Positions 23,596-64,000 of a stretch of DNA of 64,000 bases are shown here, one piece after another. The first letter of the stretch is position 1. Every line of letters begins with the position of its first letter. The stretch is from NCBI GenBank assembly GCA_964017185.1, contig OZ024884.1:10889548-10953547 (forward strand), written 5' to 3'. Source of the stretch: Rugalucina vietnamica. Taxonomy: Eukaryota > Mollusca > Bivalvia > Lucinida > Lucinidae. The notes under the pieces were generated by a model that did not search any database, was not told the DNA's origin, and saw only the letters and a program-made list of their open reading frames with translations. Position numbers and translations under genes: made by a program.

Positions 23596-23766
23596 AGATG
23601 TAAACTTGAGGTCTATCACAAGATACATAATCAATAAGCAATATGTTATCATTTGAGTTGCGACGCAAGAAACCCGCTCTTCTGTATTTCCGACCAGATC
23701 CGACATAAACTGTTCTATACACCCACAGAAGAAAGCAAGAATCTTGAAATTTTGAGATGGGTGAAG

Positions 23767-24647: not shown

Positions 24648-27600
24648 AATAGGGGTACAAAGATGACCGAAAATGGAAATTTCTGTATATAGTATTGCAA
24701 TGTGTCGGTACCAACTCGGTTTCTCACAGAACCCCACCGAGTTTAGGGAGTTCGAGACCCAGTGGGGCTTGTAGTCCATACAAGTGCCTTTACAGCCCAT
24801 AGGTCGGTTATACTGGGAAAACTCTGGTTTGTCGGAAATTTCAACTCAAACATTGGGAAACGTGAACATTCATGGGTTTGGGGGTGGGGTATGAGGCACC
24901 CCTGTCATTGACGTGCGCGGAGTTTAGGGAGCAAGCGACCTAGTGGGATTTACAGTAGAAGGGATGTACTTTCAGACCACACCAGCGGCTATGCCGGGAA
25001 AACTCTAGTTTTCGAGAAATAGGGGTACAAAGATGACCGAAAATGGAAATTTCTGTATATAGTATTGCAATGTGTCGGTACCAACTCGGGCTGGTTTCTC
25101 ACAGAACCCCACCGAGTTTAGGGAGTTCGAGACCCAGTGGGGCTTGTAGTCCATACAAGTGTCTTTACAGCCCATAGGTCGGTTATACTGGGAAAACTCT
25201 GGTTTGTCGGAAATTTCAACTCAAACATTGGGAAACGTGAACATTCATGGGTTTGGGGGTGGGGTATGAGGCACCCCTGTCATTGACGTGCGCGGAGTTT
25301 AGGGAGCAAGCGACCTAGTGGGATTTACAGTAGAAGGGATGTACTTTCAGACCACACCAGCGGCTATGCCGGGAAAACTCTAGTTTTCGAGAAATAGGGG
25401 TACAAAGATGACCGAAAATGGAAATTTCTGTATATAGTATTGCAATGTGTCGGTACCAACTCGGGCTGGTTTCTCACAGAACCCCACCGAGTTTAGGGAG
25501 TTCGACACCCAGTGGGGCTTGTAGTCCATACAAGTGCCTTTACAGCCCATAGGTCGGTTATACTGGGAAAACTCTGGTTTGTCGGAAATTTCAACTCAAA
25601 CATTGGGAAACGTGAACATTCATGGGTTTGGGGGTGGGGTATGAGGCACCCCTGTCATTGACGTGCGCGGTGTTTAGGGAGCAAGCGACCTAGTGGGATT
25701 TACAGTAGAAGGGATGTACTTTCAGACCACACCAGCGGCTATGCCGGGAAAACTCTAGTTTTCGAGAAATAGGGGTACAAAGATGACCGAAAATGGAAAT
25801 TTCTGTATATAGTATTGCAATGTGTCGGTACCAACTCGGGCTGGTTTCTCACAGAACCCCACCGAGTTTAGGGAGTTCGAGACCCAGTGGGGCTTGTAGT
25901 CCATACAAGTGCCTTTACAGCCCATAGGTCGGTTATACTGGGAAAACTCTGGTTTGTCGGAAATTTCAACTCAAACATTGGGAAACGTGAACATTCATGG
26001 GTTTTGGGGTGGGGTATGAGGCACCCCTGTCATTGACGTGCGCGGAGTTTAGGGAGCAAGCGACCTAGTGGGATTTACAGTAGAAGGGATGTACTTTCAG
26101 ACCACACCAGCGGCTATGACGGGAAAACTCTAGTTTTCGAGAAATAGGGGTACAAAGATGACCGAAAATGGAAATTTCTGTATATAGTATTGCAATGTGT
26201 CGGTACCAACTCGGGCTGGTTTCTCACAGAACCCCACCGAGTTTAGGGAGTTCGAGACCCAGTGGGGCTTGTAGTCCATACAAGTGCCTTTACAGCCCAT
26301 AGGTCGGTTATACTGGGAAAACTCTGGTTTGTCGGAAATTTCAACTCAAACATTGGGAAACGTGAACATTCATGGGTTTGGGGGTGGGGTATGAGGCACC
26401 CCTGTCATTGACGTGCGCGGAGTTTAGGGAGCAAGCGACCTAGTGGGATTTACAGTAGAAGGGATGTACTTTCAGACCACACCAGCGGCTATGCCGGGAA
26501 AACTCTAGTTTCCGAGAAATAGGGGTACAAAGATGACCAAAAATGGAAATTTCTGTATATAGTATTGCAATGTGTCGGTACCAACTCGGGCTGGTTTCTC
26601 ACAGAACCCCACCGAGTTTAGGGAGTTCGAGACCCAGTGGGGCTTGTAGTCCATACAAGTGTCTTTACAGCCCATAGGTCGGTTATACTGGGAAAACTCT
26701 GGTTTGTCGGAAATTTCAACTCAAACATTGGGAAACTTGAACATTCATGGGTTTTGGGGTGGGGTATGAGGCACCCCTGTCATTGACGTGCGCGGAGTTT
26801 AGGGAGCAAGCGACCTAGTGGGATTTACAGTAGAAGGGATGTACTTTCAGACCACACCAGCGGCTATGCCGGGAAAACTCTAGTTTTCGAGAAATAGGGG
26901 TACAAAGATGACCAAAAATGGAAATTTCTGTATATAGTATTGCAATGTGTCGGTACCAACTCGGGCTGGTTTCTCACAGAACCCCACCGAGTTTAGGGAG
27001 TTCGAGACCCAGTGGGGCTTGTAGTCCATACAAGTGCCTTTACAGCCCATAGGTCGGTTATACTGGGAAAACTCTGGTTTGTCGGAAATTTCAACTCAAA
27101 CATTGGGAAACGTGAACATTCATGGGTTTGGGGGTGGGGTATGAGGCACCCCTGTCATTGACGTGCGCGGTGTTTAGGGAGCAAGCGACCTAGTGGGATT
27201 TACAGTAGAAGGGATGTACTTTCAGACCACACCAGCGGCTATGCCGGGAAAACTCTAGTTTTCGAGAAATAGGGGTACAAAGATGACCGAAAATGGAAAT
27301 TTCTGTATATAGTATTGCAATGTGTCGGTACCAACTCGGGCTGGTTTCTCACAGAACCCCACCGAGTTTAGGGAGTTCGAGACCCAGTGGGGCTTGTAGT
27401 CCATACAAGTGCCTTTACAGCCCATAGGTCGGTTATACTGGGAAAACTCTGGTTTGTCGGAAATTTCAACTCAAACATTGGGAAACGTGAACATTCATGG
27501 GTTTTGGGGTGGGGTATGAGGCACCCCTGTCATTGACGTGCGCGGAGTTTAGGGAGCAAGCGACCTAGTGGGATTTACAGTAGAAGGGATGTACTTTCAG

Positions 27601-30600
27601 ACCACACCAGCGGCTATGCCGGGAAAACTCTAGTTTTCGAGAAATAGGGGTACAAAGATGACCGAAAATGGAAATTTCTGTATATAGTATTGCAATGTGT
27701 CGGTACCAACTCGGGCTGGTTTCTCACAGAACCCCACCGAGTTTAGGGAGTTCGAGACCCAGTGGGGCTTGTAGTCCATACAAGTGCCTTTACAGCCCAT
27801 AGGTCGGTTATACTGGGAAAACTCTGGTTTGTCGGAAATTTCAACTCAAACATTGGGAAACGTGAACATTCATGGGTTTGGGGGTGGGGTATGAGGCACC
27901 CCTGTCATTGACGTGCGCGGAGATTAGGGAGCAAGCGACCTAGTGGGATTTACAGTAGAAGGGATGTACTTTCAGACCACACCAGCGGCTATGCCGGGAA
28001 AACTCTAGTTTTCGAGAAATAGGGGTACAAAGATGACCGAAAATGGAAATTTCTTCTGTATATAGTATTGCAATGTGTCGGTACCAGCTCGGGCTGGTTT
28101 CTCACAGAACCCCACCGAGTTTAGGGAGTTCGAGACCCAGTGGGGCTTGTAGTCCATACAAGTGCCTTTACAGCCCATAGGTCGGTTATACTGGGAAAAC
28201 TCTGGTTTGTCGGAAATTTCAACTCAAACATTGGGAAACGTGAACATTCATGGGTTTGGGGGTGGGGTATGAGGCACCCCTGTCATTGACGTGCGCGGAG
28301 TTTAGGGAGCAAGCGACCTAGTGGGATTTACAGTAGAAGGGATGTACTTTCAGACCACACCAGCGGCTATGCCGGGAAAACTCTAGTTTTCGAGAAATAG
28401 GGGTACAAAGATGACCGAAAATGGAAATTTCTGTATATAGTATTGCAATGTGTCGGTACCAACTCGGGCTGGTTTCTCACAGAACCCCACCGAGTTTAGG
28501 GAGTTCGAGACCCAGTGGGGCTTGTAGTCCATACAAGTGCCTTTACAGCCCATAGGTCGGTTATACTGGGAAAACTCTGGTTTGTCGGAAATTTCAACTC
28601 AAACATTGGGAAACGTGAACATTCATGGGTTTGGGGGTGGGGTATGAGGCTCCCCTGTCATTGACGTGCGCGGAGTTTAGGGAGCAAGCGACCTAGTGGG
28701 ATTTACAGTAGAAGGGATGTACTTTCAGACCACACCAACGGCTATGCCGGGAAAACTCTAGTTTTCGAGAAATAGGGGTACAAAGATGACCGAAAATGGA
28801 AATTTCTGTATATAGTATTGCAATGTGTCGGTACCAACTCGGGCTGGTTTCTCACAGAACCCCACCGAGTTTAGGGAGTTCGAGACCCAGTGGGGCTTGT
28901 AGGCCATACAAGTGCCTTTACAGCCCATAGGTCGGTTATACTGGGAAAACTCTGGTTTGTCGGAAATTTCAACTCAAACATTGGGAAACGTGAACATTCA
29001 TGGGTTTGGGGGTGGGGTATGAGGCACCCCTGTCATTGACGTGCGCGGAGTTTAGGGAGCAAGCGACCTAGTGGGATTTACAGTAGAAGGGATGTACTTT
29101 CAGACCACACCAGCGGCTATGCCGGGAAAACTCTAGTTTTCGAGAAATAGGGGTACAAAGATGACCGAAAATGGAAATTTCTGTATATAGTATTGCAATG
29201 TGTCGGTACCAACTCGGGCTGGTTTCTCACAGAACCCCACCGAGTTTAGGGAGTTCGAGACCCAGTGGGGCTTGTAGTCCATACAAGTGTCTTTACAGCC
29301 CATAGGTCGGTTATACTGGGAAAACTCTGGTTTGTCGGAAATTTCAACTCAAACATTGGGAAACGTGAACATTCATGGGTTTGGGGGTGGGGTATGAGGC
29401 ACCCCTGTCATTGACGTGCGCGGAGTTTAGGGAGCAAGCGACCTAGTGGGATTTACAGTAGAAGGGATGTACTTTCAGACCACACCAGCGGCTATGCCGG
29501 GAAAACTCTAGTTTTCGAGAAATAGGGGTACAAAGATGACCGAAAATGGAAATTTCTGTATATAGTATTGCAATGTGTCGGTACCAACTCGGGCTGGTTT
29601 CTCACAGAACCCCACCGAGTTTAGAGAGTTCGACACCCAGTGGGGCTTGTAGTCCATACAAGTGCCTTTACAGCCCATAGGTCGGTTATACTGGGAAAAC
29701 TCTGGTTTGTCGGAAATTTCAACTCAAACATTGGGAAACGTGAACATTCATGGGTTTGGGGGTGGGGTATGAGGCACCCCTGTCATTGACGTGCGCGGTG
29801 TTTAGGGAGCAAGCGACCTAGTGGGATTTACAGTAGAAGGGATGTACTTTCAGACCACACCAGCGGCTATGCCGGGAAAACTCTAGTTTTCGAGAAATAG
29901 GGGTACAAAGATGACCGAAAATGGAAATTTCTGTATATAGTATTGCAATGTGTCGGTACCAACTCGGGCTGGTTTCTCACAGAACCCCACCGAGTTTAGG
30001 GAGTTCGAGACCCAGTGGGGCTTGTAGTCCATACAAGTGCCTTTACAGCCCATAGGTCGGTTATACTGGGAAAACTCTGGTTTGTCGGAAATTTCAACTC
30101 AAACATTGGGAAACGTGAACATTCATGGGTTTTGGGGTGGGGTATGAGGCACCCCTGTCATTGACGTGCGCGGAGTTTAGGGAGCAAGCGACCTAGTGGG
30201 ATTTACAGTAGAAGGGATGTACTTTCAGACCACACCAGCGGCTATGCCGGGAAAACTCTAGTTTTCGAGAAATAGGGGTACAAAGATGACCGAAAATGGA
30301 AATTTCTGTATATAGTATTGCAATGTGTCGGTACCAACTCGGGCTGGTTTCTCACAGAACCCCACCGAGTTTAGGGAGTTCGAGACCCAGTGGGGCTTGT
30401 AGTCCATACAAGTGCCTTTACAGCCCATAGGTCGGTTATACTGGGAAAACTCTGGTTTGTCGGAAATTTCAACTCAAACATTGGGAAACGTGAACATTCA
30501 TGGGTTTGGGGGTTGGGTATGAGGCACCCCTGTCATTGACGTGCGCGGAGTTTAGGGAGCAAGCGACCTAGTGGGATTTACAGTAGAAGGGATGTACTTT

Positions 30601-33600
30601 CAGACCACACCAGCGGCTATGCCGGGAAAACTCTAGTTTTCGAGAAATAGGGGTACAAAGATGACCGAAAATGGAAATTTCTTCTGTATATAGTATTGCA
30701 ATGTGTCAGTACCAGCTCGGGCTGGTTTCTCACAGAACCCCACCGAGTTTAGGGAGTTCGAGACCCAGTGGGGCTTGTAGTCCATACAAGTGCCTTTACA
30801 GCCCATAGGTCGGTTATACTGGGAAAACTCTGGTTTGTCGGAAATTTCAACTCAAACATTGGGAAACGTGAACATTCATGGGTTTGGGGGTGGGGTATGA
30901 GGCACCCCTGTCATTGACGTGCGCGGAGTTTAGGGAGCAAGCGACCTAGTGGGATTTACAGTAGAAGGGATGTACTTTCAGACCACACCAGCGGCTATGC
31001 CGGGAAAACTCTAGTTTCCGAGAAATAGGGGTACAAAGATGACCAAAAATGGAAATTTCTGTATATAGTATTGCAATGTGTCGGTACCAACTCGGGCTGG
31101 TTTCTCACAGAACCCCACCGAGTTTAGGGAGTTCGAGACCCAGTGGGGCTTGTAGTCCATACAAGTGTCTTTACAGCCCATAGGTCGGTTATACTGGGAA
31201 AACTCTGGTTTGTCGGAAATTTCAACTCAAACATTGGGAAACTTGAACATTCATGGGTTTTGGGGTGGGGTATGAGGCACCCCTGTCATTGACGTGCGCG
31301 GAGTTTAGGGAGCAAGCGACCTAGTGGGATTTACAGTAGAAGGGATGTACTTTCAGACCACACCAGCGGCTATGCCGGGAAAACTCTAGTTTTCGAGAAA
31401 TAGGGGTACAAAGATGACCAAAAATGGAAATTTCTGTATATAGTATTGCAATGTGTCGGTACCAACTCGGGCTGGTTTCTCACAGAACCCCACCGAGTTT
31501 AGGGAGTTCGAGACCCAGTGGGGCTTGTAGTCCATACAAGTGCCTTTACAGCCCATAGGTCGGTTATACTGGGAAAACTCTGGTTTGTCGGAAATTTCAA
31601 CTCAAACATTGGGAAACGTGAACATTCATGGGTTTGGGGGTGGGGTATGAGGCACCCCTGTCATTGACGTGCGCGGTGTTTAGGGAGCAAGCGACCTAGT
31701 GGGATTTACAGTAGAAGGGATGTACTTTCAGACCACACCAGCGGCTATGCCGGGAAAACTCTAGTTTTCGAGAAATAGGGGTACAAAGATGACCGAAAAT
31801 GGAAATTTCTGTATATAGTATTGCAATGTGTCGGTACCAACTCGGGCTGGTTTCTCACAGAACCCCACCGAGTTTAGGGAGTTCGAGACCCAGTGGGGCT
31901 TGTAGTCCATACAAGTGCCTTTACAGCCCATAGGTCGGTTATACTGGGAAAACTCTGGTTTGTCGGAAATTTCAACTCAAACATTGGGAAACGTGAACAT
32001 TCATGGGTTTTGGGGTGGGGTATGAGGCACCCCTGTCATTGACGTGCGCGGAGTTTAGGGAGCAAGCGACCTAGTGGGATTTACAGTAGAAGGGATGTAC
32101 TTTCAGACCACACCAGCGGCTATGCCGGGAAAACTCTAGTTTTCGAGAAATAGGGGTACAAAGATGACCGAAAATGGAAATTTCTGTATATAGTATTGCA
32201 ATGTGTCGGTACCAACTCGGGCTGGTTTCTCACAGAACCCCACCGAGTTTAGGGAGTTCGAGACCCAGTGGGGCTTGTAGTCCATACAAGTGTCTTTACA
32301 GCCCATAGGTCGGTTATACTGGGAAAACTCTGGTTTGTCGGAAATTTCAACTCAAACATTGGGAAACGTGAACATTCATGGGTTTGGGGGTGGGGTATGA
32401 GGCACCCCTGTCATTGACGTGCGCGGAGTTTAGGGAGCAAGCGACCTAGTGGGATTTACAGTAGAAGGGATGTACTTTCAGACCACACCAGCGGCTATGC
32501 CGGGAAAACTCTAGTTTTCGAGAAATAGGGGTACAAAGATGACCGAAAATGGAAATTTCTTCTGTATATAGTATTGCAATGTGTCGGTACCAGCTCGGGC
32601 TGGTTTCTCACAGAACCCCACCGAGTTTAGGGAGTTCGAGACCCAGTGGGGCTTGTAGTCCATACAAGTGCCTTTACAGCCCATAGGTCGGTTATACTGG
32701 GAAAACTCTGGTTTGTCGGAAATTTCAACTCAAACATTGGGAAACGTGAACATTCATGGGTTTGGGGGTGGGGTATGAGGCACCCCTGTCATTGACGTGC
32801 GCGGAGTTTAGGGAGCAAGCGACCTAGTGGGATTTACAGTAGAAGGGATGTACTTTCAGACCACACCAGCGGCTATGCCGGGAAAACTCTAGTTTTCGAG
32901 AAATAGGGGTACAAAGATGACCGAAAATGGAAATTTCTGTATATAGTATTGCAATGTGTCGGTACCAACTCGGGCTGGTTTCTCACAGAACCCCACCGAG
33001 TTTAGGGAGTTCGAGACCCAGTGGGGCTTGTAGTCCATACAAGTGCCTTTACAGCCCATAGGTCGGTTATACTGGGAAAACTCTGGTTTGTCGGAAATTT
33101 CAACTCAAACATTGGGAAACGTGAACATTCATGGGTTTGGGGGTGGGGTATGAGGCTCCCCTGTCATTGACGTGCGCGGAGTTTAGGGAGCAAGCGACCT
33201 AGTGGGATTTACAGTAGAAGGGATGTACTTTCAGACCACACCAACGGCTATGCCGGGAAAACTCTAGTTTTCGAGAAATAGGGGTACAAAGATGACCGAA
33301 AATGGAAATTTCTGTATATAGTATTGCAATGTGTCGGTACCAACTCGGGCTGGTTTCTCACAGAACCCCACCGAGTTTAGGGAGTTCGAGACCCAGTGGG
33401 GCTTGTAGTCCATACAAGTGCCTTTACAGCCCATAGGTCGGTTATACTGGGAAAACTCTGGTTTGTCGGAAATTTCAACTCAAACATTGGGAAACGTGAA
33501 CATTCATGGGTTTGGGGGTGGGGTATGAGGCACCCCTGTCATTGACGTGCGCGGAGTTTAGGGAGCAAGCGACCTAGTGGGATTTACAGTAGAAGGGATG

Positions 33601-36600
33601 TACTTTCAGACCACACCAGCGGCTATGCCGGGAAAACTCTAGTTTTCGAGAAATAGGGGTACAAAGATGACCGAAAATGGAAATTTCTGTATATAGTATT
33701 GCAATGTGTCGGTACCAACTCGGGCTGGTTTCTCACAGAACCCCACCGAGTTTAGGGAGTTCGAGACCCAGTGGGGCTTGTAGTCCATACAAGTGTCTTT
33801 ACAGCCCATAGGTCGGTTATACTGGGAAAACTCTGGTTTGTCGGAAATTTCAACTCAAACATTGGGAAACGTGAACATTCATGGGTTTGGGGGTGGGGTA
33901 TGAGGCACCCCTGTCATTGACGTGCGCGGAGTTTAGGGAGCAAGCGACCTAGTGGGATTTACAGTAGAAGGGATGTACTTTCAGACCACACCAGCGGCTA
34001 TGCCGGGAAAACTCTAGTTTTCGAGAAATAGGGGTACAAAGATGACCGAAAATGGAAATTTCTGTATATAGTATTGCAATGTGTCGGTACCAACTCGGGC
34101 TGGTTTCTCACAGAACCCCACCGAGTTTAGGGAGTTCGACACCCAGTGGGGCTTGTAGTCCATACAAGTGCCTTTACAGCCCATAGGTCGGTTATACTGG
34201 GAAAACTCTGGTTTGTCGGAAATTTCAACTCAAACATTGGGAAACGTGAACATTCATGGGTTTGGGGGTGGGGTATGAGGCACCCCTGTCATTGACGTGC
34301 GCGGTGTTTAGGGAGCAAGCGACCTAGTGGGATTTACAGTAGAAGGGATGTACTTTCAGACCACACCAGCGGCTATGCCGGGAAAACTCTAGTTTTCGAG
34401 AAATAGGGGTACAAAGATGACCGAAAATGGAAACTTCTGTATATAGTATTGCAATGTGTCGGTACCAACTCGGGCTGGTTTCTCACAGAACCCCACCGAG
34501 TTTAGGGAGTTCGAGACCCAGTGGGGCTTGTAGTCCATACAAGTGCCTTTACAGCCCATAGGTCGGTTATACTGGGAAAACTCTGGTTTGTCGGAAATTT
34601 CAACTCAAACATTGGGAAACGTGAACATTCATGGGTTTTGGGGTGGGGTATGAGGCACCCCTGTCATTGACGTGCGCGGAGTTTAGGGAGCAAGCGACCT
34701 AGTGGGATTTACAGTAGAAGGGATGTACTTTCAGACCACACCAGCGGCTATGCCGGGAAAACTCTAGTTTTCGAGAAATAGGGGTACAAAGATGACCGAA
34801 AATGGAAATTTCTGTATATAGTATTGCAATGTGTCGGTACCAACTCGGGCTGGTTTCTCACAGAACCCCACCGAGTTTAGGGAGTTCGAGACCCAGTGGG
34901 GCTTGTAGTCCATACAAGTGCCTTTACAGCCCATAGGTCGGTTATACTGGGAAAACTCTGGTTTGTCGGAAATTTCAACTCAAACATTGGGAAACGTGAA
35001 CATTCATGGGTTTGGGGGTGGGGTATGAGGCACCCCTGTCATTGACGTGCGCGGAGTTTAGGGAGCAAGCGACCTAGTGGGATTTACAGTAGAAGGGATG
35101 TACTTTCAGACCACACCAGCGGCTATGCCGGGAAAACTCTAGTTTTCGAGAAATAGGGGTACAAAGATGACCGAAAATGGAAATTTCTTCTGTATATAGT
35201 ATTGCAATGTGTCGGTACCAGCTCGGGCTGGTTTCTCACAGAACCCCACCGAGTTTAGGGAGTTCGAGACCCAGTGGGGCTTGTAGTCCATACAAGTGCC
35301 TTTACAGCCCATAGGTCGGTTATACTGGGAAAACTCTGGTTTGTCGGAAATTTCAACTCAAACATTGGGAAACGTGAACATTCATGGGTTTGGGGGTGGG
35401 GTATGAGGCACCCCTGTCATTGACGTGCGCGGTGTTTAGGGAGCAAGCGACCTAGTGGGATTTACAGTAGAAGGGATGTACTTTCAGACCACACCAGCGG
35501 CTATGCCGGGAAAACTCTAGTTTTCGAGAAATAGGGGTACAAAGATGACCGAAAATGGAAATTTCTGTATATAGTATTGCAATGTGTCGGTACCAACTCG
35601 GGCTGGTTTCTCACAGAACCCCACCGAGTTTAGGGAGTTCGAGACCCAGTGGGGCTTGTAGTCCATACAAGTGCCTTTACAGCCCATAGGTCGGTTATAC
35701 TGGGAAAACTCTGGTTTGTCGGAAATTTCAACTCAAACATTGGGAAACGTGAACATTCATGGGTTTGGGGGTGGGGTATGAGGCACCCCTGTCATTGACG
35801 TGCGCGGAGTTTAGGGAGCAAGCGACCTAGTGGGATTTACAGTAGAAGGGATGTACTTTCAGACCACACCAGCGGCTATGCCGGGAAAACTCTAGTTTCC
35901 GAGAAATAGGGGTACAAAGATGACCAAAAATGGAAATTTCTGTATATAGTATTGCAATGTGTCGGTACCAACTCGGGCTGGTTTCTCACAGAACCCCACC
36001 GAGTTTAGGGAGTTCGAGACCCAGTGGGGCTTGTAGTCCATACAAGTGTCTTTACAGCCCATAGGTCGGTTATACTGGGAAAACTCTGGTTTGTCGGAAA
36101 TTTCAACTCAAACATTGGGAAACTTGAACATTCATGGGTTTTGGGGTGGGGTATGAGGCACCCCTGTCATTGACGTGCGCGGAGTTTAGGGAGCAAGCGA
36201 CCTAGTGGGATTTACAGTAGAAGGGATGTACTTTCAGACCACACCAGCGGCTATGCCGGGAAAACTCTAGTTTTCGAGAAATAGGGGTACAAAGATGACC
36301 AAAAATGGAAATTTCTGTATATAGTATTGCAATGTGTCGGTACCAACTCGGGCTGGTTTCTCACAGAACCCCACCGAGTTTAGGGAGTTCGAGACCCAGT
36401 GGGGCTTGTAGTCCATACAAGTGCCTTTACAGCCCATAGGTCGGTTATACTGGGAAAACTCTGGTTTGTCGGAAATTTCAACTCAAACATTGGGAAACGT
36501 GAACATTCATGGGTTTGGGGGTGGGGTATGAGGCACCCCTGTCATTGACGTGCGCGGTGTTTAGGGAGCAAGCGACCTAGTGGGATTTACAGTAGAAGGG

Positions 36601-50027: not shown

Positions 50028-53000
50028 GCCTCATACCCCATCCCCAAACCCATGAATGTTTACGTTTCCCAATGTTTGAGTTGTAATTTCCGACAAACCA
50101 GAGTTTTCCCAGTATAACCGACCTATGGGCTGTAAAGGCACTTGTATGGACTACAAGCCCCACTGGGTCTCGAACTCCCTAAACTCGGTGGGGTTCTGTG
50201 AGAAACCAGCTCGAGTTGTACCGACACATTGCACTACTATACAGAAATGTCCATTTTTAGTCATTTTTGTACCCCTATTTCTCGAAAACTAGAGTTTTCC
50301 CGGCATAGCCGCTGGTGTGGTCTGAAAGTACATCCCTTCTACTGTAAATCTCACTAGGTCGCTTGCTCCCTAAACTCCGCGCACGTTAATGACAGGGGTT
50401 CCTCATACCCAACCCACATACCCATGAATGTTCACGTTTCCCAATGTTTGAGTTGAAATTTCCGACAAACCAGAGTTTTCCCAGTATAACCGACCTATGG
50501 GCTGTAAAGGCACTTGTATGGACTACAAGCCCCACTGGGTCTCGAACTCCCTAAACTCGGTGGGGTTATGTGAGAAACCAGCCCGAGTTGGTACCGACAC
50601 ATTGCAATACTATACAGAAATTTCCATTTTCGGTCATTTTTGTACCCCTATTTCTCGAAAACTAGAGTTTTCCCGGCATAGCCGCTGATGTGGTCTGAAA
50701 GTACATCCCTTCTACTGTAAATCCCACTAGGTCGCTTGCTCCCTAAACTCCGCGCACGTCAATGACAGGGGTGCCTCATACCCAACCCCCAAACCCATGA
50801 ATGTTCACGTTTTCCAATGTTTGAGTTGAAATTTCCGACAAACCAGAGTTTTCCCAGTATAACCGACCTATGGGCTGTAAAGGCACTTGCATGGACTACA
50901 AGCCCCACTTGGTCTCGAACTCCTTAAACTCGGTGGGATTCTGTGAGAAACCAGCCCGAGTTGGTACCGACACATTGCAATACTATACAGAAATTTCCAT
51001 TTTTGGTCATTTTTGTACCCCTATTTCTCGAAAACTAGAGTATTCCCGGCATAGCCGTTTATGTGGTCTGAAAGTACATCCCTTCTACTGTAAATCCCAC
51101 TAGGTCGCTTGCTCCCTAAACTCCGCGCACGTCAATGACAGGGGTGCTTCATACCCAACCCCCATACCCATGAATGTTCACGTTTCCCAATGTTTGAGTT
51201 GAAATTTCCGACAAACCAAAGTTTTCCCAGTATAACCGACCTATGGGCTGTAAAGGCACTTGTATGGAGTACAAGCCCCACTGGGTCTCGAACTCCCTTA
51301 ACTCGGTGGGGTTCTGTGAGAAACCAGCCCGAGTTGGTACCGACACATTGTAATACTATACAGAAAATTTCCATTTTTGGTCATTTTTGTACCCCTATTT
51401 CTCGAAAACTAGAGTTTTCCCGGCATAGCCGCTTATGTGGTCTGAAAGTACGTCCCTTATACTATAAATTGCACTAGGTCGCATGCTCCCTAAACTCCGC
51501 GCACGTCAATGACAGGGGTGCCTCATACCCTACCCCCAAACCCATGAATGTTCACGTTTCCCAATGTTTGAGTTGAAATTTCCGACAAACCAGAGTTTTC
51601 CCAGCATAACCGACCTATGGGTTGTAAAGGCACTTGTATGGCCTACTAGCCCCACTGGGTCTCGAACTCCCTAAACTCGGTGGGGTTCTGTGAGAAACCA
51701 GCCCGAGTTGGTACCGACACATTGCAATACTATACAGAAATTTCCATTTTCGGTCATCTTTGTACCCCTATTTCTCGAAAACTAGAGTTTTCCCGGCATA
51801 GCCGCTGGTGTGGTCTGAAAGTACATCCCTTCTACTGTAAATACCACTAGGTCGCTTGCTCCCTAAACTCCGCGCACGTCAATGACAGGGGTGCCTCATA
51901 CCCCACCCCCAAACCCATGAATGTTCACGTTTCCCAATGTTCGAGTTGAAATTTCCGACAAACCAGAGTTTTCCCAGTATAACCGACCTATGGGCTGTAA
52001 AGGCACTTGTATGGACTACAAGCCCCACTGGGTCTCGAACTCCCTAAACTCGGTGGGGTTCTGTGAGAAACCAGCCCGAGTTGGTACCGACACATTGCAA
52101 TAATATACAGAAATTTCCATTTTCGGTCATCTTTGTACCCCTATTTCTCGAAAACTAGAGTTTTCCCGGCATAGCCGCTGGTGTGGTCTGAAAGTACATC
52201 CCTTCTACTGTAAATCCCACTAGGTCGCTTGCTCCCAAAACTCCGCGCACGTCAATGACAGGGGTGCCTCATACCCCACCCCAAACCCATGAATGTTCAC
52301 GTTTCCCAATGTTTGAGTTGAAATTTCCGACAAACCAGAGTTTTCCCAGTATAACCGACCTATGGGCTGTAAAGGCACTTGTATGGACTACAAGCCCCAC
52401 TGGGTCTCGAACTCCCTAAACTCGGTGGGGTTCTGTGAGAAACCAGCCCGAGTTGGTACCGACACATTGCAATACTATACAGAAATTTCCATTTTCGGTC
52501 ATCTTTGTACCCCTATTTCTCAAAAACTAGAGTTTTCCCGGCATAGCCGCTGGTGTGGTCTGAAAGTACATCCCTTCTACTGTAAATCCCACTAGGTCGC
52601 TTGCTCCCTAAACTCCGCGCACGTCAATGACATGGGTGCCTCATACCCCACCCCCAAACCCATGAATGTTCACGTTTCCCAATGTTTGAGTTGAAATTTC
52701 CGACAAACCAGAGTTTTCCCAGTATAACCGACCTATGGGCTGTAAAGGCACTTGTATGGACTACAAGCCCCACTGGGTCTCGAACTCCCTAAACTCGGTG
52801 GGGTTCTGTGAGAAACCAGCCCGAGTTGGTACCGACACATTGCAATACTATACAGAAATTTCCATTTTCGGTCATCTTTGTACCCCTATTTCTCGAAAAC
52901 TAGAGTTTTCCCGGCATAGCCGCTGGTGTGGTCTGAAAGTACATCCCTTCTACTGTAAATCCCACTAGGTCGCTTGCTCCCTAAACTCCGCGCACGTCAA

Positions 53001-53079
53001 TGACAGGGGTGCCTCATACCCCACCCCCAAACCCATGAATGTTCACGTTTCCCAATGTTTGAGTTGAAATTTCCGACAA

Positions 53080-53239
53080 ACCAGAGTTTTCCCAGTATAA
53101 CCGACCTATGGGCTGTAAAGGCACTTGTATGGACTACAAGCCCCACTGGGTCTCGAACTCCCTAAACTCGGTGGGGTTCTGTGAGAAACCAGCCCGAGTT
53201 GGTACCGACACATTGCAATACTATACAGAAATTTCCATT
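53080..53239 (-). repeat. 160 bp deleted satellite unit
   Basis: The unit jumps from TTTCCATT directly to ACCAGAGTTTTCCCAG, missing 213 bp. The same junction recurs at 60486/60487 and 62137/62138. Confidence 0.9.
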
Positions 53240-56200
53240 ACCAGAGTTTTCCCAGTATAACCGACCTATGGGCTGTAAAGGCACTTGTATGGACTACAAG
53301 CCCCACTGGGTCTCGAACTCCCTAAACTTGGTGGGGTTCTGTGAGAAACCAGCCCGAGTTGCTACCGACACATTGCTATACTATACAGAACTTTCCATTT
53401 TCGGTCATCTTTGTACCCCTATTTCTCGAAAACTAGAGTTTTCCCGGCATAGCCGCTGGTGTGGTCTGAAAGTACATCCCTTCTACTGTAAATCCCACTA
53501 GGTCGCTTGCTCCCTAAACTCCACGCACGTCAATGACAGGGGTGCCTCATACCCCACCCCCAAACCCATGAATGTTCACGTTTCCCAATGTTCGAGTTGA
53601 AATTTCCGACAAACCAGAGTTTTCCCAGTATAACCGACCTATGGGCTGTAAAGGCACTTGTATGGACTACAAGCCCCACTGGGTCTCGAACTCCCTAAAC
53701 TCGGTGGGGTTCTGTGAGAAACCAGCCCGAGTTGGTACCGACACATTGCAATACTATACAGAAATTTCCATTTTCGGTCATCTTTGTACCCCTATTTCTC
53801 GAAAACTAGAGTTTTCCCGGCATAGCCGCTGGTGTGGTCTGAAAGTACATCCCTTCTTCTGTAAATCCCACTAGGTCGATTGCTCCCTAAACTCCGCGCA
53901 CGTCAATGACAGGGGTGCCTCATACCCCACCACCAAACCCATGAATGTTCACGTTTCCCAATGTTTGAGTTGAAATTTCCGACAAACCAGAGTTTTCCCA
54001 GTATAACCGACCTATGGGCTGTAAAGGCACTTGTATGGACTACAAGCCCCACTGGGTCTCGAACTCCCTATACTCGGTGGGGTTCTGTGAGAAACCAGCC
54101 CGAGTTGGTACCGACACATTGCAATACTATACAGAAATTTCCATTTTCGGTCATCTTTGTACCCCTATTTCTCGAAAACTAGAGTTTTCCCGGCATAGCC
54201 GCTGGTGTGGTCTGAAAGTACATCCCTTCTACTGTAAATCCCACTAGGTCGCTTGCTCCCTAAACTCCGCGCACGTCAATGACAGGGGTGCCTCATACCC
54301 CACCCCAAACCCATGAATGTTCACGTTTCCCAATGTTTGAGTTGAAATTTCCGACAAACCAGAGTTTTCCCAGTATAACCGACCTATGGGCTGTAAAGGC
54401 ACTTGTATGGACTACAAGCCCCACTGGGTCTCGAACTCCCTAAACTCGGTGGGGTTCTGTGAGAAACCAGCCCGAGTTGGTACCGACACATTGCAATACT
54501 ATACAGAAATTTCCATTTTCGGTCATCTTTGTACCCCTATTTCTCAAAAACTAGAGTTTTCCCGGCATAGCCGCTGGTGTGGTCTGAAAGTACATCCCTT
54601 CTACTGTAAATCCCACTAGGTCGCTTGCTCCCTAAACTCCGCGCACGTCAATGACAGGGGTGCCTCATACCCCACCCCCAAACCCATGAATGTTCACGTT
54701 TCCCAATGTTTGAGTTGAAATTTCCGACAAACCAGAGTTTTCCCAGTATAACCGACCTATGGGCTGTAAAGGCACTTGTATGGACTACAAGCCCCACTGG
54801 GTCTCGAACTCCCTAAACTCGGTGGGGTTCTGTGAGAAACCAGCCCGAGTTGGTACCGACACATTGCAATACTATACAGAAATTTCCATTTTCGGTCATC
54901 TTTGTACCCCTATTTCTCGAAAACTAGAGTTTTCCCGGCATAGCCGCTGGTGTGGTCTGAAAGTACATCCCTTCTACTGTAAATCCCACTAGGTCGCTTG
55001 CTCCCTAAACTCCGCGCACGTCAATGACAGGGGTGCCTCATACCCCACCCCCAAACCCATGAATGTTCACGTTTCCCAATGTTTGAGTTGAAATTTCCGA
55101 CAAACCAGAGTTTTCCCAGTATAACCGACCTATGGGCTGTAAAGGCACTTGTATGGACTACAAGCCCCACTGGGTCTCGAACTCCCTAAACTCGGTGGGG
55201 TTCTGTGAGAAACCAGCCCGAGTTGGTACCGACACATTGCAATACTATACAGAAATTTCCATTTTCGGTCATCTTTGTACCCCTATTTCTCGAAAACTAG
55301 AGTTTTCCCGGCATAGCCGCTGGTGTGGTCTGAAAGTACATCCCTTCTACTGTAAATCCCACTAGGTCGCTTGCTCCCTAAACTCCGCGCACGTCAATGA
55401 CAGGGGGTGCCTCATACCCCACCCCCAAACCTATGAATGTTCACGTTTCCCAATGTTTGAGTTGAAATTTCCGACAAACCAGAGTTTTCCCAGTATAACC
55501 GACCTATGGGTTGTAAAGGCACTTGTATGGACTACAAGCCCCACTGGGTCTCGAACTCCCTAAACTTGGTGGGGTTCTGTGAGAAACCAGCCCGAGTTGG
55601 TACCGACACATTGCAATACTATACAGAAATTTCCATTTTCGGTCATCTTTGTACCCCTATTTCTCGAAAACTAGAGTTTTCCCGGCATAGCCGCTGGTGT
55701 GGTCTGAAAGTACATCCCTTCTACTGTAAATCCCACTAGGTCGCTTGCTCCCTAAACTCCGCGCACGTCAATGACAGGGGTGCCTCATACCCTACCCCCA
55801 AACCCATGAATGTTCACGTTTCCCAATGTTCGAGTTGAAATTTCCGACAAACCAGAGTTTTCCCAGTATAACCGACCTATGGGCTGTAAAGGCACTTGTA
55901 TGGACTACAAGCCCCACTGGGTCTCGAACTCCCTAAACTCGGTGGGGTTCTGTGAGAAACCAGCCCGAGTTGGTACCGACACATTGCAATACTATACAGA
56001 AATTTCCATTTTCGGTCATCTTTGTACCCCTATTTCTCGAAAACTAGAGTTTTCCCGGCATAGCCGCTGGTGTGGTCTGAAAGTACATCCCTTCTACTGT
56101 AAATCCCACTAGGTCTCTTGCTCCCTAAACTCCGCGCACGTCAATGACAGGGGTGCCTCATACCCCACCACCAAACCCATGAATGTTCACGTTTCCCAAT

Positions 56201-59200
56201 GTTTGAGTTAAAATTTCCGACAAACCAGAGTTTTCCCAGTATAACCGACCTATGGGCTGTAAAGGCACTTGTATGGACTACAAGCCCCACTGGGTCTCGA
56301 ACTCCCTAAACTCGGTGGGGTTCTGTGAGAAACCAGCCCGAGTTGGTACCGACACATTGCAATACTATACAGAAATTTCCATTTTCGGTCATCTTTGTAC
56401 CCCTATTTCTCGAAAACTAGAGTTTTCCCGGCATAGCCGCTGGTGTGGTCTGAAAGTACATCCCTTCTACTGTAAATCCCACTAGGTCGCTTGCTCCCTA
56501 AACTCCGCGCACGTCAATGACAGGGGGTGCCTCATACCCCACCCCCAAACCTATGAATGTTCACGTTTCCCAATGTTTGAGTTGAAATTTCCGACAAACC
56601 AGAGTTTTCCCAGTATAACCGACCTATGGGTTGTAAAGGCACTTGTATGGACTACAAGCCCCACTGGGTCTCGAACTCCCTAAACTTGGTGGGGTTCTGT
56701 GAGAAACCAGCCCGAGTTGGTACCGACACATTGCAATACTATACAGAAATTTCCATTTTCGGTCATCTTTGTACCCCTATTTCTCGAAAACTAGAGTTTT
56801 CCCGGCATAGCCGCTGGTGTGGTCTGAAAGTACATCCCTTCTACTGTAAATCCCACTAGGTCGCTTGCTCCCTAAACTCCGCGCACGTCAATGACAGGGG
56901 TGCCTCATACCCTACCCCCAAACCCATGAATGTTCACGTTTCCCAATGTTCGAGTTGAAATTTCCGACAAACCAGAGTTTTCCCAGTATAACCGACCTAT
57001 GGGCTGTAAAGGCACTTGTATGGACTACAAGCCCCACTGGGTCTCGAACTCCCTAAACTCGGTGGGGTTCTGTGAGAAACCAGCCCGAGTTGGTACCGAC
57101 ACATTGCAATACTATACAGAAATTTCCATTTTCGGTCATCTTTGTACCCCTATTTCTCGAAAACTAGAGTTTTCCCGGCATAGCCGCTGGTGTGGTCTGA
57201 AAGTACATCCCTTCTACTGTAAATCCCACTAGGTCTCTTGCTCCCTAAACTCCGCGCACGTCAATGACAGGGGTGCCTCATACCCCACCACCAAACCCAT
57301 GAATGTTCACGTTTCCCAATGTTTGAGTTGAAATTTCCGACAAACCAGAGTTTTCCCAGTATAACCGACCTATGGGCTGTAAAGGCACTTGTATGGACTA
57401 CAAGCCCCACTGGGTCTCGAACTCCCTAAACTCGGTGGGGTTCTGTGAGAAACCAGCCCGAGTTGGTACCGACACATTGCAATACTATACAGAAATTTCC
57501 ATTTTCGGTCATCTTTGTACCCCTATTTCTCGAAAACTAGAGTTTTCCCGGCATAGCCGCTGGTGTGGTCTGAAAGTACATCCCTTCTTCTGTAAATCCC
57601 ACTAGGTCGATTGCTCCCTAAACTCCGCGCACGTCAATGACAGGGGTGCCTCATACCCCACCACCAAACCCATGAATGTTCACGTTTCCCAATGTTTGAG
57701 TTGAAATTTCCGACAAACCAGAGTTTTCCCAGTATAACCGACCTATGGGCTGTAAAGGCACTTGTATGGACTACAAGCCCCACTGGGTCTCGAACTCCCT
57801 AAACTCGGTGGGGTTCTGTGAGAAACCAGCCCGAGTTGGTACCGACACATTGCAATACTATACAGAAATTTCCATTTTCGGTCATCTTTGTACCCCTATT
57901 TCTCGAAAACTAGAGTTTTCCCGGCATAGCCGCTGGTGTGGTCTGAAAGTACATCCCTTCTACTGTAAATCCCACTAGGTCGCTTGCTCCCTAAACTCCG
58001 CGCACGTCAATGACAGGGGTGCCTCATACCCCACCCCCAAACCCATGAATGTTCACGTTTCCCAATGTTTGAGTTGAAATTTCCGACAAACCAGAGTTTT
58101 CCCAGTATAACCGACCTATGGGCTGTAAAGGCACTTGTATGGACTACAAGCCCCACTGGGTCTCGAACTCCCTAAACTCGGTGGGGTTCTGTGAGAAACC
58201 AGCCCGAGTTGGTACCGACACATTGCAATACTATACAGAAATTTCCATTTTCGGTCATCTTTGTACCCCTATTTCTCGAAAACTAGAGTTTTCCCGGCAT
58301 AGCCGCTGGTGTGGTCTGCAAGTACATCCCTTCTACTGTAAATCCCACTAGGTCGCTTGCTCCCTTAACTCCGCGTACGTCAATGACAGGGGTGCCTCAT
58401 ACCCCACCCCCAAACCCATGAATGTTCACGTTTCCCAATGTTTGTGTTGAAATTTCCGACAAACCAGAGTTTTCCCAGTATAACCGACCTATGGGCTGTA
58501 AAGGCACTTGTATGGACTACAAGCCCCACTGGGTCTCGAACTCCCTAAACTCGGTGGGGTTCTGTGAGAAACCAGCCCGAGTTGGTACCGACACATTGCA
58601 ATACTATACAGAAATTTCCATTTTCGGTCATCTTTGTACCCCTATTTCTCGAAAACTAGAGTTTTCCCGGCATAGCCGCTGGTGTGGTCTGAAAGTACAT
58701 CCCTTCTACTGTAAATCCCACTAGGTCGCTTGCTCCCTAAACTCCGCGCACGTCAATGACAGGGGTGCCTCATACCCCACCCCAAACCCATGAATGTTCA
58801 CGTTTCCCAATGTTTGAGTTGAAATTTCCGACAAACCAGAGTTTTCCCAGTATAACCGACCTATGGGCTGTAAAGGCACTTGTATGGACTACAAGCCCCA
58901 CTGGGTCTCGAACTCCCTAAACTCGGTGGGGTTCTGTGAGAAACCAGCCCGAGTTGGTACCGACAAATTGCAATACTATACAGAAATTTCCATTTTCGGT
59001 CATCTTTGTACCCCTATTTCTCAAAAACTAGAGTTTTCCCGGCATAGCCGCTGGTGTGGTCTGAAAGTACATCCCTTCTACTGTAAATCCCACTAGGTCG
59101 CTTGCTCCCTAAACTCCGCGCACGTCAATGACAGGGGTGCCTCATACCCCACCCCCAAACCCATGAATGTTCACGTTTCCCAATGTTTGAGTTGAAATTT

Positions 59201-60326
59201 CCGACAAACCAGAGTTTTCCCAGTATAATCGACCTATGGGCTGTAAAGGCACTTGTATGGACTACAAGCCCCACTGGGTCTCGAACTCCCTAAACTCGGT
59301 GGGGTTCTGTGAGAAACCAGCCCGAGTTGGTACCGACACATTGCAATACTATACAGAAATTTCCATTTTCGGTCATCTTTGTACCCCTATTTCTCGAAAA
59401 CTAGAGTTTTCCCGGCATAGCCGCTGGTGTGGTCTGAAAGTACATCCCTTCTACTGTAAATCCCACTAGGTCGCTTGCTCCCTAAACTCCGCGCACGTCA
59501 ATGACAGGGGTGCCTCATACCCCACCCCCAAACCCATGAATGTTCACGTTTCCCAATGTTTGAGTTGAAATTTCCGACAAACCAGAGTTTTCCCAGTATA
59601 ACCGACCTATGGGCTGTAAAGGCACTTGTATGGACTACAAGCCCCACTGGGTCTCGAACTCCCTAAACTCGGTGGGGTTCTGTGAGAAACCAGCCCGAGT
59701 TAGTACCGACACATTGCAATACTATACAGAAATTTCCATTTTCGGTCATCTTTGTACCCCTATTTCTCAAAAACTAGAGTTTTCCCGGCATAGCCGCTGG
59801 TGTGGTCTGAAAGTACATCCCTTCTACTGTAAATCCCACTAGGTCGCTTGCTCCCTAAACTCCGCGCACGTCAATGACAGGGGTGCCTCATACCCCACCC
59901 CCAAACCCATGAATGTTCACGTTTCCCAATGTTTGAGTTGAAATTTCCGACAAACCAGAGTTTTCCCAGTATAACCGACCTATGGGCTGTAAAGGCACTT
60001 GTATGGACTACAAGCCCCACTGGGTCTCGAACTCCCTAAACTCGGTGGGGTTCTGTGAGAAACCAGCCCGAGTTGGTACCGACACATTGCAATACTATAC
60101 AGAAATTTCCATTTTCGGTCATCTTTGTACCCCTATTTCTCGAAAACTAGAGTTTTCCCGGCATAGCCGCTGGTGTGGTCTGAAAGTACATCCCTTCTAC
60201 TGTAAATCCCACTAGGTCGCTTGCTCCCTAAACTCCGCGCACGTCAATGACAGGGGTGCCTCATACCCCACCCCCAAACCCATGAATGTTCACGTTTCCC
60301 AATGTTTGAGTTGAAATTTCCGACAA

Positions 60327-60486
60327 ACCAGAGTTTTCCCAGTATAACCGACCTATGGGCTGTAAAGGCACTTGTATGGACTACAAGCCCCACTGGGTCT
60401 CGAACTCCCTAAACTCGGTGGGGTTCTGTGAGAAACCAGCCCGAGTTGGTACCGACACATTGCAATACTATACAGAAATTTCCATT
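60327..60486 (-). repeat. 160 bp deleted satellite unit (second occurrence)
   Basis: Identical breakpoint to the unit at 53080-53239. The following unit lacks the GTTGCTACC variant seen after the other two, so the blocks have since diverged. Confidence 0.9.
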
Positions 60487-61977
60487 ACCAGAGTTTTCCC
60501 AGTATAACCGACCTATGGGCTGTAAAGGCACTTGTATGGACTACAAGCCCCACTGGGTCTCGAACTCCCTAAACTTGGTGGGGTTCTGTGAGAAACCAGC
60601 CCGAGTTGGTACCGACACATTGCAATACTATACAGAAATTTCCATTTTCGGTCATCTTTGTACCCCTATTTCTCGAAAACTAGAGTTTTCCCGGCATAGC
60701 CGCTGGTGTGGTCTGAAAGTACATCCCTTCTACTGTAAATACCACTAGGTCGCTTGCTCCCTAAACTCCGCGCACGTCAATGACAGGGGTGCCTCATACC
60801 CCACCCCCAAACCCATGAATGTTCACGTTTCCCAATGTTCGAGTTGAAATTTCCGACAAACCAGAGTTTTCCCAGTATAACCGACCTATGGGCTGTAAAG
60901 GCACTTGTATGGACTACAAGCCCCACTGGGTCTCGAACTCCCTAAACTCGGTGGGGTTCTGTGAGAAACCAGCCCGAGTTGGTACCGACACATTGCAATA
61001 CTATACAGAAATTTCCATTTTCGGTCATCTTTGTACCCCTATTTCTCGAAAACTAGAGTTTTCCCGGCATAGCCGCTGGTGTGGTCTGAAAGTACATCCC
61101 TTCTACTGTAAATCCCACTAGGTCGCTTGCTCCCAAAACTCCGCGCACGTCAATGACAGGGGTGCCTCATACCCCACCCCAAACCCATGAATGTTCACGT
61201 TTCCCAATGTTTGAGTTGAAATTTCCGACAAACCAGAGTTTTCCCAGTATAACCGACCTATGGGCTGTAAAGGCACTTGTATGGACTACAAGCCCCACTG
61301 GGTCTCGAACTCCCTAAACTCGGTGGGGTTCTGTGAGAAACCAGCCCGAGTTGGTACCGACACATTGCAATACTATACAGAAATTTCCATTTTCGGTCAT
61401 CTTTGTACCCCTATTTCTCAAAAACTAGAGTTTTCCCGGCATAGCCGCTGGTGTGGTCTGAAAGTACATCCCTTCTACTGTAAATCCCACTAGGTCGCTT
61501 GCTCCCTAAACTCCGCGCACGTCAATGACAGGGGTGCCTCATACCCAACCCCCAAACCCATGAATGTTCACGTTTCCCAATGTTTGAGTTGAAATTTCCG
61601 ACAAACCAGAGTTTTCCCAGTATAACCGACCTATGGGCTGTAAAGGCACTTGTATGGACTACAAGCCCCACTGGGTCTCGAACTCCCTAAACTCGGTGGG
61701 GTTCTGTGAGAAACCAGCCCGAGTTGGTACCGACACATTGCAATACTATACAGAAATTTCCATTTTCGGTCATCTTTGTACCCCTATTTCTCGAAAACTA
61801 GAGTTTTCCCGGCATAGCCGCTGGTGTGGTCTGAAAGTACATCCCTTCTACTGTAAATCCCACTAGGTCGCTTGCTCCCTAAACTCCGCGCACGTCAATG
61901 ACAGGGGTGCCTCATACCCCACCCCCAAACCCATGAATGTTCACGTTTCCCAATGTTTGAGTTGAAATTTCCGACAA

Positions 61978-62137
61978 ACCAGAGTTTTCCCAGTATAACC
62001 GACCTATGGGCTGTAAAGGCACTTGTATGGACTACAAGCCCCACTGGGTCTCGAACTCCCTAAACTCGGTGGGGTTCTGTGAGAAACCAGCCCGAGTTGG
62101 TACCGACACATTGCAATACTATACAGAAATTTCCATT
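61978..62137 (-). repeat. 160 bp deleted satellite unit (third occurrence)
   Basis: Identical breakpoint. The sequence after it carries the same GTTGCTACC, CTCCACGCACG and CTTCTTCTG variants as the block after 53240, 8898 bp away. Confidence 0.9.
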
Positions 62138-64000
62138 ACCAGAGTTTTCCCAGTATAACCGACCTATGGGCTGTAAAGGCACTTGTATGGACTACAAGCC
62201 CCACTGGGTCTCGAACTCCCTAAACTTGGTGGGGTTCTGTGAGAAACCAGCCCGAGTTGCTACCGACACATTGCAATACTATACAGAAATTTCCATTTTC
62301 GGTCATCTTTGTACCCCTATTTCTCGAAAACTAGAGTTTTCCCGGCATAGCCGCTGGTGTGGTCTGAAAGTACATCCCTTCTACTGTAAATCCCACTAGG
62401 TCGCTTGCTCCCTAAACTCCACGCACGTCAATGACAGGGGTGCCTCATACCCCACCCCCAAACCCATGAATGTTCACGTTTCCCAATGTTCGAGTTGAAA
62501 TTTCCGACAAACCAGAGTTTTCCCAGTATAACCGACCTATGGGCTGTAAAGGCACTTGTATGGACTACAAGCCCCACTGGGTCTCGAACTCCCTAAACTC
62601 GGTGGGGTTCTGTGAGAAACCAGCCCGAGTTGGTACCGACACATTGCAATACTATACAGAAATTTCCATTTTCGGTCATCTTTGTACCCCTATTTCTCGA
62701 AAACTAGAGTTTTCCCGGCATAGCCGCTGGTGTGGTCTGAAAGTACATCCCTTCTTCTGTAAATCCCACTAGGTCGATTGCTCCCTAAACTCCGCGCACG
62801 TCAATGACAGGGGTGCCTCATACCCCACCACCAAACCCATGAATGTTCACGTTTCCCAATGTTTGAGTTAAAATTTCCGACAAACCAGAGTTTTCCCAGT
62901 ATAACCGACCTATGGGCTGTAAAGGCACTTGTATGGACTACAAGCCCCACTGGGTCTCGAACTCCCTAAACTCGGTGGGGTTCTGTGAGAAACCAGCCCG
63001 AGTTGGTACCGACACATTGCAATACTATACAGAAATTTCCATTTTCGGTCATCTTTGTACCCCTATTTCTCGAAAACTAGAGTTTTCCCGGCATAGCCGC
63101 TGGTGTGGTCTGAAAGTACATCCCTTCTACTGTAAATCCCACTAGGTCGCTTGCTCCCTAAACTCCGCGCACGTCAATGACAGGGGTGCCTCATACCCCA
63201 CCCCCAAACCCATGAATGTTCACGTTTCCCAATGTTTGAGTTGAAATTTCCGACAAACCAGAGTTTTCCCAGTATAACCGACCTATGGGCTGTAAAGGCA
63301 CTTGTATGGACTACAAGCCCCACTGGGTCTCGAACTCCCTAAACTCGGTGGGGTTCTGTGAGAAACCAGCCCGAGTTGGTACCGACACATTGCAATACTA
63401 TACAGAAATTTCCATTTTCGGTCATCTTTGTACCCCTATTTCTCGAAAACTAGAGTTTTCCCGGCATAGCCGCTGGTGTGGTCTGCAAGTACATCCCTTC
63501 TACTGTAAATCCCACTAGGTCGCTTGCTCCCTAAACTCCGCGTACGTCAATGACAGGGGTGCCTCATACCCCACCCCCAAACCCATGAATGTTCACGTTT
63601 CCCAATGTTTGAGTTGAAATTTCCGACAAACCAGAGTTTTCCCAGTATAACCGACCTATGGGCTGTAAAGGCACTTGTATGGACTACAAGCCCCACTGGG
63701 TCTCGAACTCCCTAAACTCGGTGGGGTTCTGTGAGAAACCAGCCCGAGTTGGTACCGACACATTGCAATACTATACAGAAATTTCCATTTTCGGTCATCT
63801 TTGTACCCCTATTTCTCGAAAACTAGAGTTTTCCCGGCATAGCCGCTGGTGTGGTCTGAAAGTACATCCCTTCTACTGTAAATCCCACTAGGTCGCTTGC
63901 TCCCTAAACTCCGCGCACGTCAATGACAGGGGTGCCTCATACCCCACCCCAAACCCATGAATGTTCACGTTTCCCAATGTTTGAGTTGAAATTTCCGACA

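What the first reader, a model, noticed from the sequence alone, without database searches (positions are those of the whole stretch)
24648..64000. Head-to-head satellite arrays forming a very large inverted repeat
About 25 kb of satellite in one orientation meets at least 14 kb of the same satellite in the other, with a spacer of about 21 bp. Satellite arrays are usually unidirectional over this scale. A single inversion junction can mark an inversion within the array, a break-induced template switch, or a functional dyad such as a centromeric or origin-like core.
Basis: seen in the sequence. Interest (0 to 1): 0.75.

Follow-up and report, generated by a model that had tools for sequence, protein, structure and literature searches.

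The report
Giant foldback transposon made of satellite
The two head-to-head satellite arrays are the two arms of one 45.8-kb non-coding transposable element that is nearly a palindrome; relatives of 17 to 72 kb sit elsewhere in the same genome, and those checked still carry the short duplicated footprint that a transposon leaves when it inserts.

Summary
In detail: a 25.3-kb array of a 375-bp satellite meets the same satellite (373 bp) in reverse across a 21-nt spacer at 49,989-50,009. It is not an inversion inside a satellite block. Reading past the window end shows that the arrays are the arms of one element of 45,798 bp (window 23,755 to position 69,552): an 892-bp end, satellite arm, loop, satellite arm, and the same end inverted, flanked by a perfect 9-bp target-site duplication, GAAATTTTG. 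The terminal 27-mer occurs 250 times in the genome (129 forward, 121 reverse; control 0). Among the 100 places listed, 44 pairs face outward and no neighbours within 150 kb face otherwise; 42 pairs span 16.9-72.2 kb. Of 20 large elements whose two flanks I read, 19 have a perfect 9-bp duplication and one a perfect 10-bp one; in all 20 the satellite, read in full or by probes, switches from + to -. This is foldback-transposon architecture, far larger than in the papers of which I saw passages. The transposase is not identified; the 9-bp duplication points to the Mutator/Foldback superfamily, unproven. A centromere reading is disfavoured by the dispersion, and an assembly artefact by the footprints.

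The parts
23746..23754 (.). left copy of the 9-bp target-site duplication GAAATTTTG (right copy at 69,553-69,561 in window numbering, beyond the window)
23755..24646 (+). 892-bp left end of the element, starting AGATGGG; repeated in inverse at 68,661-69,552, 2.02% different
23770..23919 (+). cluster of GCCGAAGTAGC-like subterminal repeats; candidate transposase-binding sites (inferred). Eight direct and one inverted copy were counted on the matching right end; the left end shows 40-bp tandem repeats here
24647..49988 (+). left arm: 375-bp satellite, 25.3 kb including a nested repeat; 65 full units, all with a TA insertion not seen in the 277 full units of the other arms (6 of these unclassified)
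48719..49013 (.). 295-bp dispersed repeat nested in the left arm
49989..50009 (.). 21-nt loop at the centre of the palindrome
50010..64000 (-). right arm: 373-bp satellite in reverse, continuing to 68,660 beyond the window

Best explanation
The head-to-head arrays are the two inverted arms of a giant, non-coding, foldback-type DNA transposon, one of a family of perhaps 100 or more copies. Shown: paired inverted ends starting AGATGGG, a short duplication of the target site at each of 20 large copies checked, satellite arms that point the same way in those 20, a short and different loop in each of the four centres read, and no long reading frame in the window's copy. Inferred: a transposase supplied in trans recognises the ends (perhaps the GCCGAAGTAGC repeats), excises the whole 17-72 kb near-palindrome and inserts it with a 9-bp stagger, probably as a Mutator/Foldback-type enzyme. 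Between moves each arm lengthens, shortens and homogenises by unequal exchange or slippage, and the centre is re-formed by deletion or snap-back copying, as expected for unstable palindromes.
For: Inverted 892-bp ends. Perfect 9-bp duplication in 15 of 15 pairs; 210 foreign combinations of flanks all have 3 or more mismatches. Of five more pairs, four have a 9-bp and one a 10-bp duplication. Terminal 27-mer 129 forward and 121 reverse, reversed control 0; 44 outward pairs among the 100 listed places, no wrong-way neighbours within 150 kb. Single + to - switch in 11 of 11 probed elements, 75 of 77 probes in satellite, + at the left end and - at the 75% point in 5 of 5 others, and one head-to-head junction in each of C16, C1, C3 and C7a. 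A 277-bp miniature with a perfect 9-bp duplication. Longest ATG frame in the window's element 100 codons.
Against: No transposase is linked to the ends: 59 MULE-domain hits, none in or within 5 kb of 51 paired elements. 10 of the 40 scored ends had no scored partner and 12 of the 100 listed ends are unpaired, though two of these do have a partner; the C13 copy at 47.99 Mb stops at a run of N. The 215-bp miniature has no matching duplication. One duplication, ATTTTTTTT, is low-complexity and weak evidence by itself. Excision and empty sites were not seen; array lengths rest on the assembly.
Confidence: 0.93

Rival explanations
1. An inversion or template switch inside an ordinary satellite block, with no mobile element.
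For: The centre of the C3 copy looks like a mirror duplication of its inner units.
Against: Both outer flanks are the same sequence in inverse, end at the same base and are bordered by target-site duplications at 20 of 20 large loci.
Confidence: 0.03
2. An assembly artefact that joined two arrays.
For: The satellite is hard to assemble; the C13 copy stops at 23 N. No reads were available.
Against: Four centres have four different loops of 21, 74, 54 and 142 nt; flanks that an assembler could not know to match carry the same 9-10 bp on both sides at 20 of 20 loci.
Confidence: 0.02
3. A centromeric or origin-like dyad.
For: Long inverted satellite; nothing else found here.
Against: The ends lie at many places on at least 13 contigs, for example on C1 near 6, 14, 20, 56, 59, 60, 61 and 99 Mb. 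Chromatin and replication were not tested.
Confidence: 0.02
4. Same element, but moved by a transposase of another superfamily than Mutator (for example P, hAT or a group not yet described).
For: Foldback shape arises in several superfamilies: Galileo belongs to P (PMC3573991, PMC3169594, passages), and a hAT-derived element of cod has tandem repeats in its inverted ends (PMC12368964, passages). No MULE gene is linked to these ends.
Against: 19 of 20 duplications are 9 bp and one 10 bp; Galileo copies are bounded by 7-bp words (PMC3573991, passages), while Tm1, with a MULE transposase, has 8-10 bp, mostly 9 (PMC3169594, passages). That P and hAT give 8 bp is recalled.
Confidence: 0.35

Closest known systems
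Tetris, foldback transposon of Drosophila virilis (PMC4079207, passages read)
   Same: Non-autonomous element without transposase; inverted ends made of a unique outer part and tandem repeats (about 220 bp); 8-10 bp target-site duplications; repeats grow into satellite arrays; fibre-FISH showed long arrays flanked by two end segments.
   Different: Three structurally complete copies were found there, and sequenced arrays reached 66 repeats (about 14.5 kb by my arithmetic). Here 20 copies of 17-72 kb have both ends and footprints, with the arms meeting at a short loop.
Tm1, Mutator/Foldback family of root-knot nematodes (PMC3169594, passages read)
   Same: Composite inverted ends with tandem repeats; mostly 9-bp target-site duplications (45 of 53 elements with 8-10 bp).
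   Different: The copies named in the passages are about 1 to 2.5 kb with a repeat of about 14 bp, and one version codes a MULE transposase. None was found here.
Galileo, foldback-like P-superfamily element of Drosophila (PMC3573991, passages read)
   Same: Long inverted ends whose internal tandem repeats vary in number independently on the two sides.
   Different: Inverted ends of 18 to 1,250 bp, 7-bp bounding words, and a known P-type transposase.
Helentron-type elements carrying satellite-like repeats in oyster (PMC7492417, passages read)
   Same: A mobile element that spreads satellite-like arrays over a genome.
   Different: A short array between two modules. Here the satellite lies in two inverted arms with target-site duplications. 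That Helitrons insert without such duplications is recalled.

Membership tests
Foldback-type DNA transposon (structural class) | Long inverted terminal repeats that make up most of the element | tested here: met
   Ends inverted, arms inverted; 95% satellite in the window's element
Foldback-type DNA transposon (structural class) | Tandem repeats inside the inverted repeats | tested here: met
   373/375-bp units in both arms
Foldback-type DNA transposon (structural class) | Target-site duplication at the outer ends | tested here: met
   20 of 20 large elements, 19 with 9 bp and one with 10 bp
Mutator superfamily | Target-site duplication of about 9 bp | tested here: met
   not specific by itself
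Mutator superfamily | MULE-type transposase in an autonomous copy with the same ends | tested here: inconclusive
   59 MULE hits in the genome, 0 in or within 5 kb of 51 paired elements; not all elements listed, flanks of the hits not fetched
P superfamily (Galileo-like) | 7-bp bounding duplication as in Galileo | tested here: not met
   9 or 10 bp in 20 of 20
P superfamily (Galileo-like) | THAP/P-type transposase | not tested
   no search made for it
Centromeric satellite | One main region per chromosome | tested here: not met
   Ends dispersed over each of several contigs
Centromeric satellite | CENP-A chromatin | not testable with these tools
   needs ChIP from the animal

The most novel reading that the evidence does not exclude
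The palindrome is renewed as part of the element's life cycle: one half is copied back onto the other by a hairpin or snap-back step, during excision repair or replication, which keeps the two ends and inner arms of one element alike and lets a non-coding element of up to 70 kb stay mobile. Hints: the two ends of the C1 element differ by 0.22% but from other ends by at least 1.35%, those of C7a by 1.12% against at least 2.13%; C3's inner arms fit a mirror register best. Against: the window's own ends differ by 2.02% and are not nearest to each other, its left arm carries a private TA in 65 of 65 units while the right arm has it in none of the 43 of 45 units that could be classified, and C1 has no clear mirror register.
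Probability: 0.22. Interest if true: 0.8.

Novelty: new variant of a known kind. Interest (0 to 1): 0.62.

Why it matters
It shows DNA transposons whose two arms are satellite arrays of up to tens of kilobases and which still have clean insertion footprints, so satellites may be dispersed as ready-made long arrays and not only expand after a small element has landed. It offers many independent near-palindromic arrays in one genome with which array growth, arm-to-arm exchange and palindrome instability can be measured, and it warns that inverted satellite junctions in assemblies may be the centres of transposons.

Tried and rejected
Rfam and ARAGORN found nothing in the window, so the GTTCGAGACC stretch of the unit was not pursued as a tRNA-like promoter. 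A core gene at the centre was sought and not found: the 4.15-kb insertion in the C1 element holds a nested LINE-like frame of 1,228 aa (reverse transcriptase and endonuclease domains), and the 1.5-kb insertion in C7a looks, by eye, like another transposon with inverted ends. Origin of the satellite from the terminal part: one local alignment scores 61 against a maximum of 33 in 200 shuffles, but blastn sees no significant match; suggestive only. The unit holds two parts 69.8% alike over 106 columns; the last self-alignment in that script was uninformative because the slices shared the same 60 bases. An inner-border pattern gave 41 places (21 forward, 20 reverse, control 0) against 250 outer ends; five elements not in that list proved to have shorter ends of about 118-200 bp joined to the same satellite. 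Whether the satellite also occurs outside such elements was not settled: two unit searches scored only 7 of 811 and 5 of 187 candidates, and the matches listed lie on C1, C3, C13 and C16 at loci with element ends. One paper search listed nothing.

Full report
What was checked. Left: 24,647-49,988, unit 375 bp with some 378-bp units. Right: stem from 50,010, unit 373 bp. Loop: 21 nt, 49,989-50,009.

The edges. The right array ends 4.66 kb beyond the window. The flank of the left array and the reverse complement of the flank of the right array match over about 900 bp at 97.8% and then stop sharply; without the array and the duplication this is 892 bp. The same end, 892-900 bp long, bounds the satellite in the C1, C3, C7a and C13 copies. 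It begins AGATGGG on both sides and is flanked by GAAATTTTG on both sides. The element is 45,798 bp, 95% satellite.

The family. A search with the terminal region scored 40 of 471 candidates; these make 15 outward-facing pairs and 10 ends without a scored partner. I read both flanks of the 15 pairs: 15 of 15 have a perfect 9-bp duplication, while the 210 combinations of a left flank with a foreign right flank have 3 or more mismatches. One of the 15, ATTTTTTTT, is low-complexity. The terminal 27-mer with up to 3 mismatches occurs 129 times forward and 121 reverse; the reversed control gives 0. Only 100 places are listed, all exact and on C1 to C13. They give 44 outward pairs and 12 ends left single, two of which do have a partner; no neighbours within 150 kb face otherwise. 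Sizes are 215 bp, 277 bp, and 42 from 16.9 to 72.2 kb, 1.84 Mb together. By proportion the 250 ends may stand for about 5.2 Mb, 0.5% of the genome (arithmetic; an extrapolation).

The interiors. Four centres were read base by base: C16 (this window), C1, C3 and C7a. C16, C1 and C7a were read from end to end, C3 only in its left arm and 12.75 kb of its right arm. Each has one head-to-head junction, with loops of 21, 74, 54 and 142 nt. In 11 further elements I placed 7 probes of 140 bases: 75 of 77 hit the satellite, 2 (both in one element) did not, and 11 of 11 show a single switch from + to - at that resolution. Five more elements, chosen because they are not among the 41 places with this subfamily's inner border, have end regions of about 118-200 bp and then the same satellite; the left end reads + and the 75% point - in 5 of 5, four have a perfect 9-bp duplication and the fifth a 10-bp one, TGATCTGCAA. 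So 20 of 20 large elements examined share the architecture; 15 of them are among the listed left ends. The C13 copy at 47.99 Mb is not in this count because it stops at 23 N. Of the two miniatures the 277-bp one has the duplication TATAGGAAG, the 215-bp one has none. The 20 duplicated words, the 10-bp one cut to 9, are all different and 33% GC.

How the arms evolve. 342 full units were aligned, partial units left out. Mean divergence is 0.7-2.8% within arms and 1.1-3.2% between arms. For 7 of 8 arms that have a read sister arm the sister is the closest other arm; C1L is the exception, nearer to C16L. The window's left arm carries TATATAG in 65 of 65 units; of the 277 units of the other arms 271 have TATAG and 6 were not classified. 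That arm has therefore been renewed without its partner. In C3 the reverse is suggested: one mirror register is best whether 6, 12, 20 or 30 inner units are compared (0.27, 0.81, 0.95, 1.20% against means of 1.22, 1.44, 1.38, 1.40), the signal fading outward; it is shifted by one unit from the present centre, and it is the best of some dozens of registers tried. C1 shows no clear register, and the best one in C16 merely avoids its divergent innermost units. The two ends of one element are nearest to each other in C1 (0.22%) and C7a (1.12%) but not in C16 (2.02%, against 1.57% from C16L to C1L and C13L); gaps were not counted.

How it most likely works. It is a non-coding transposon moved in trans. 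The outer 165 bp of the right end hold eight direct and one inverted GCCGAAGTAGC-like repeats at up to 2 mismatches, and the satellite unit holds none even at 3: a plausible array of binding sites. As a DNA strand the outer 200 nt fold better than shuffles, z -3.87, 1 of 200 shuffles folding as well. Insertion with a 9-bp stagger is inferred from the footprints. The transposase is unknown. Of 59 MULE-domain hits none lies in or within 5 kb of 51 paired elements, so no coding MULE copy was seen; whether one of those genes serves the family could not be tested, because the flanks of the hits could not be fetched. Other transposase families were not searched.

Comparison with what is known. The shape is that of foldback elements. 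Of Tetris (PMC4079207), Tm1 (PMC3169594) and Galileo (PMC3573991) I saw passages, and likewise of PMC12628747, PMC8268682, PMC12910113, PMC7492417, PMC12368964 and PMC10783647. The closest is Tetris, whose 220-bp repeats inside the inverted ends grow into arrays of up to 66 units and, by fibre-FISH, into long arrays flanked by two end segments; so the idea that a foldback element breeds satellite is not new. The difference is scale and intactness: up to tens of kilobases in an arm, with both ends and the footprint in place at 20 loci. The paper searches listed no title or abstract start that describes an element of this size; they cover an open-access library only, and the species is not known to me, so a description may exist elsewhere.

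Verdict. A real and well-supported family of giant foldback-type transposons; the superfamily is a lead, not a result.

Noticed in passing
window 3842-5371 (-) and 7188-7613 (+): A 509-aa frame with a weak Mab-21 domain match (22.6 bits, below the cut-off of 24.1) and, on the other strand, a 141-aa fragment 56% identical to part of it over 136 positions: perhaps a duplicated cGAS-like receptor gene.
   Followed up: partly
window 18116-20104: Three adjoining tandem duplications with periods 325, 457 and 201 bp; the 201-bp pair is 100% identical.
   Followed up: no
window 48719-49013: A 295-bp dispersed repeat nested in the left arm; similar copies at 80-97% identity lie around the C1 and C13 elements, many near C13.
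   Followed up: partly
window 53080-53399, 60327-60646, 61978-62297: Extra 160-bp partial units in the right arm, each a tandem pair 97-99% alike; none of this kind is seen in the spacing of the left arm.
   Followed up: no
L017 1019-4705 (-): An open 1,228-aa LINE-like frame (PHD finger, endonuclease, reverse transcriptase) nested in the right arm of the C1 element.
   Followed up: partly
L069 2193-3715: A 1.5-kb insertion in the left arm of C7a that by eye begins and ends with inverted repeats rich in GCGTG; perhaps another transposon.
   Followed up: no
L082 and L086 (C13:8256034-8256173 and C13:8291181-8291320): Two of seven probes in one 70-kb element hit no satellite, so that copy holds other sequence not read here.
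   Followed up: no
C2:81319873-81320087 (L073) and C3:43192152-43192428 (L074): Miniature versions of 215 and 277 bp with the same termini and no satellite; the second has a perfect 9-bp duplication.
   Followed up: partly
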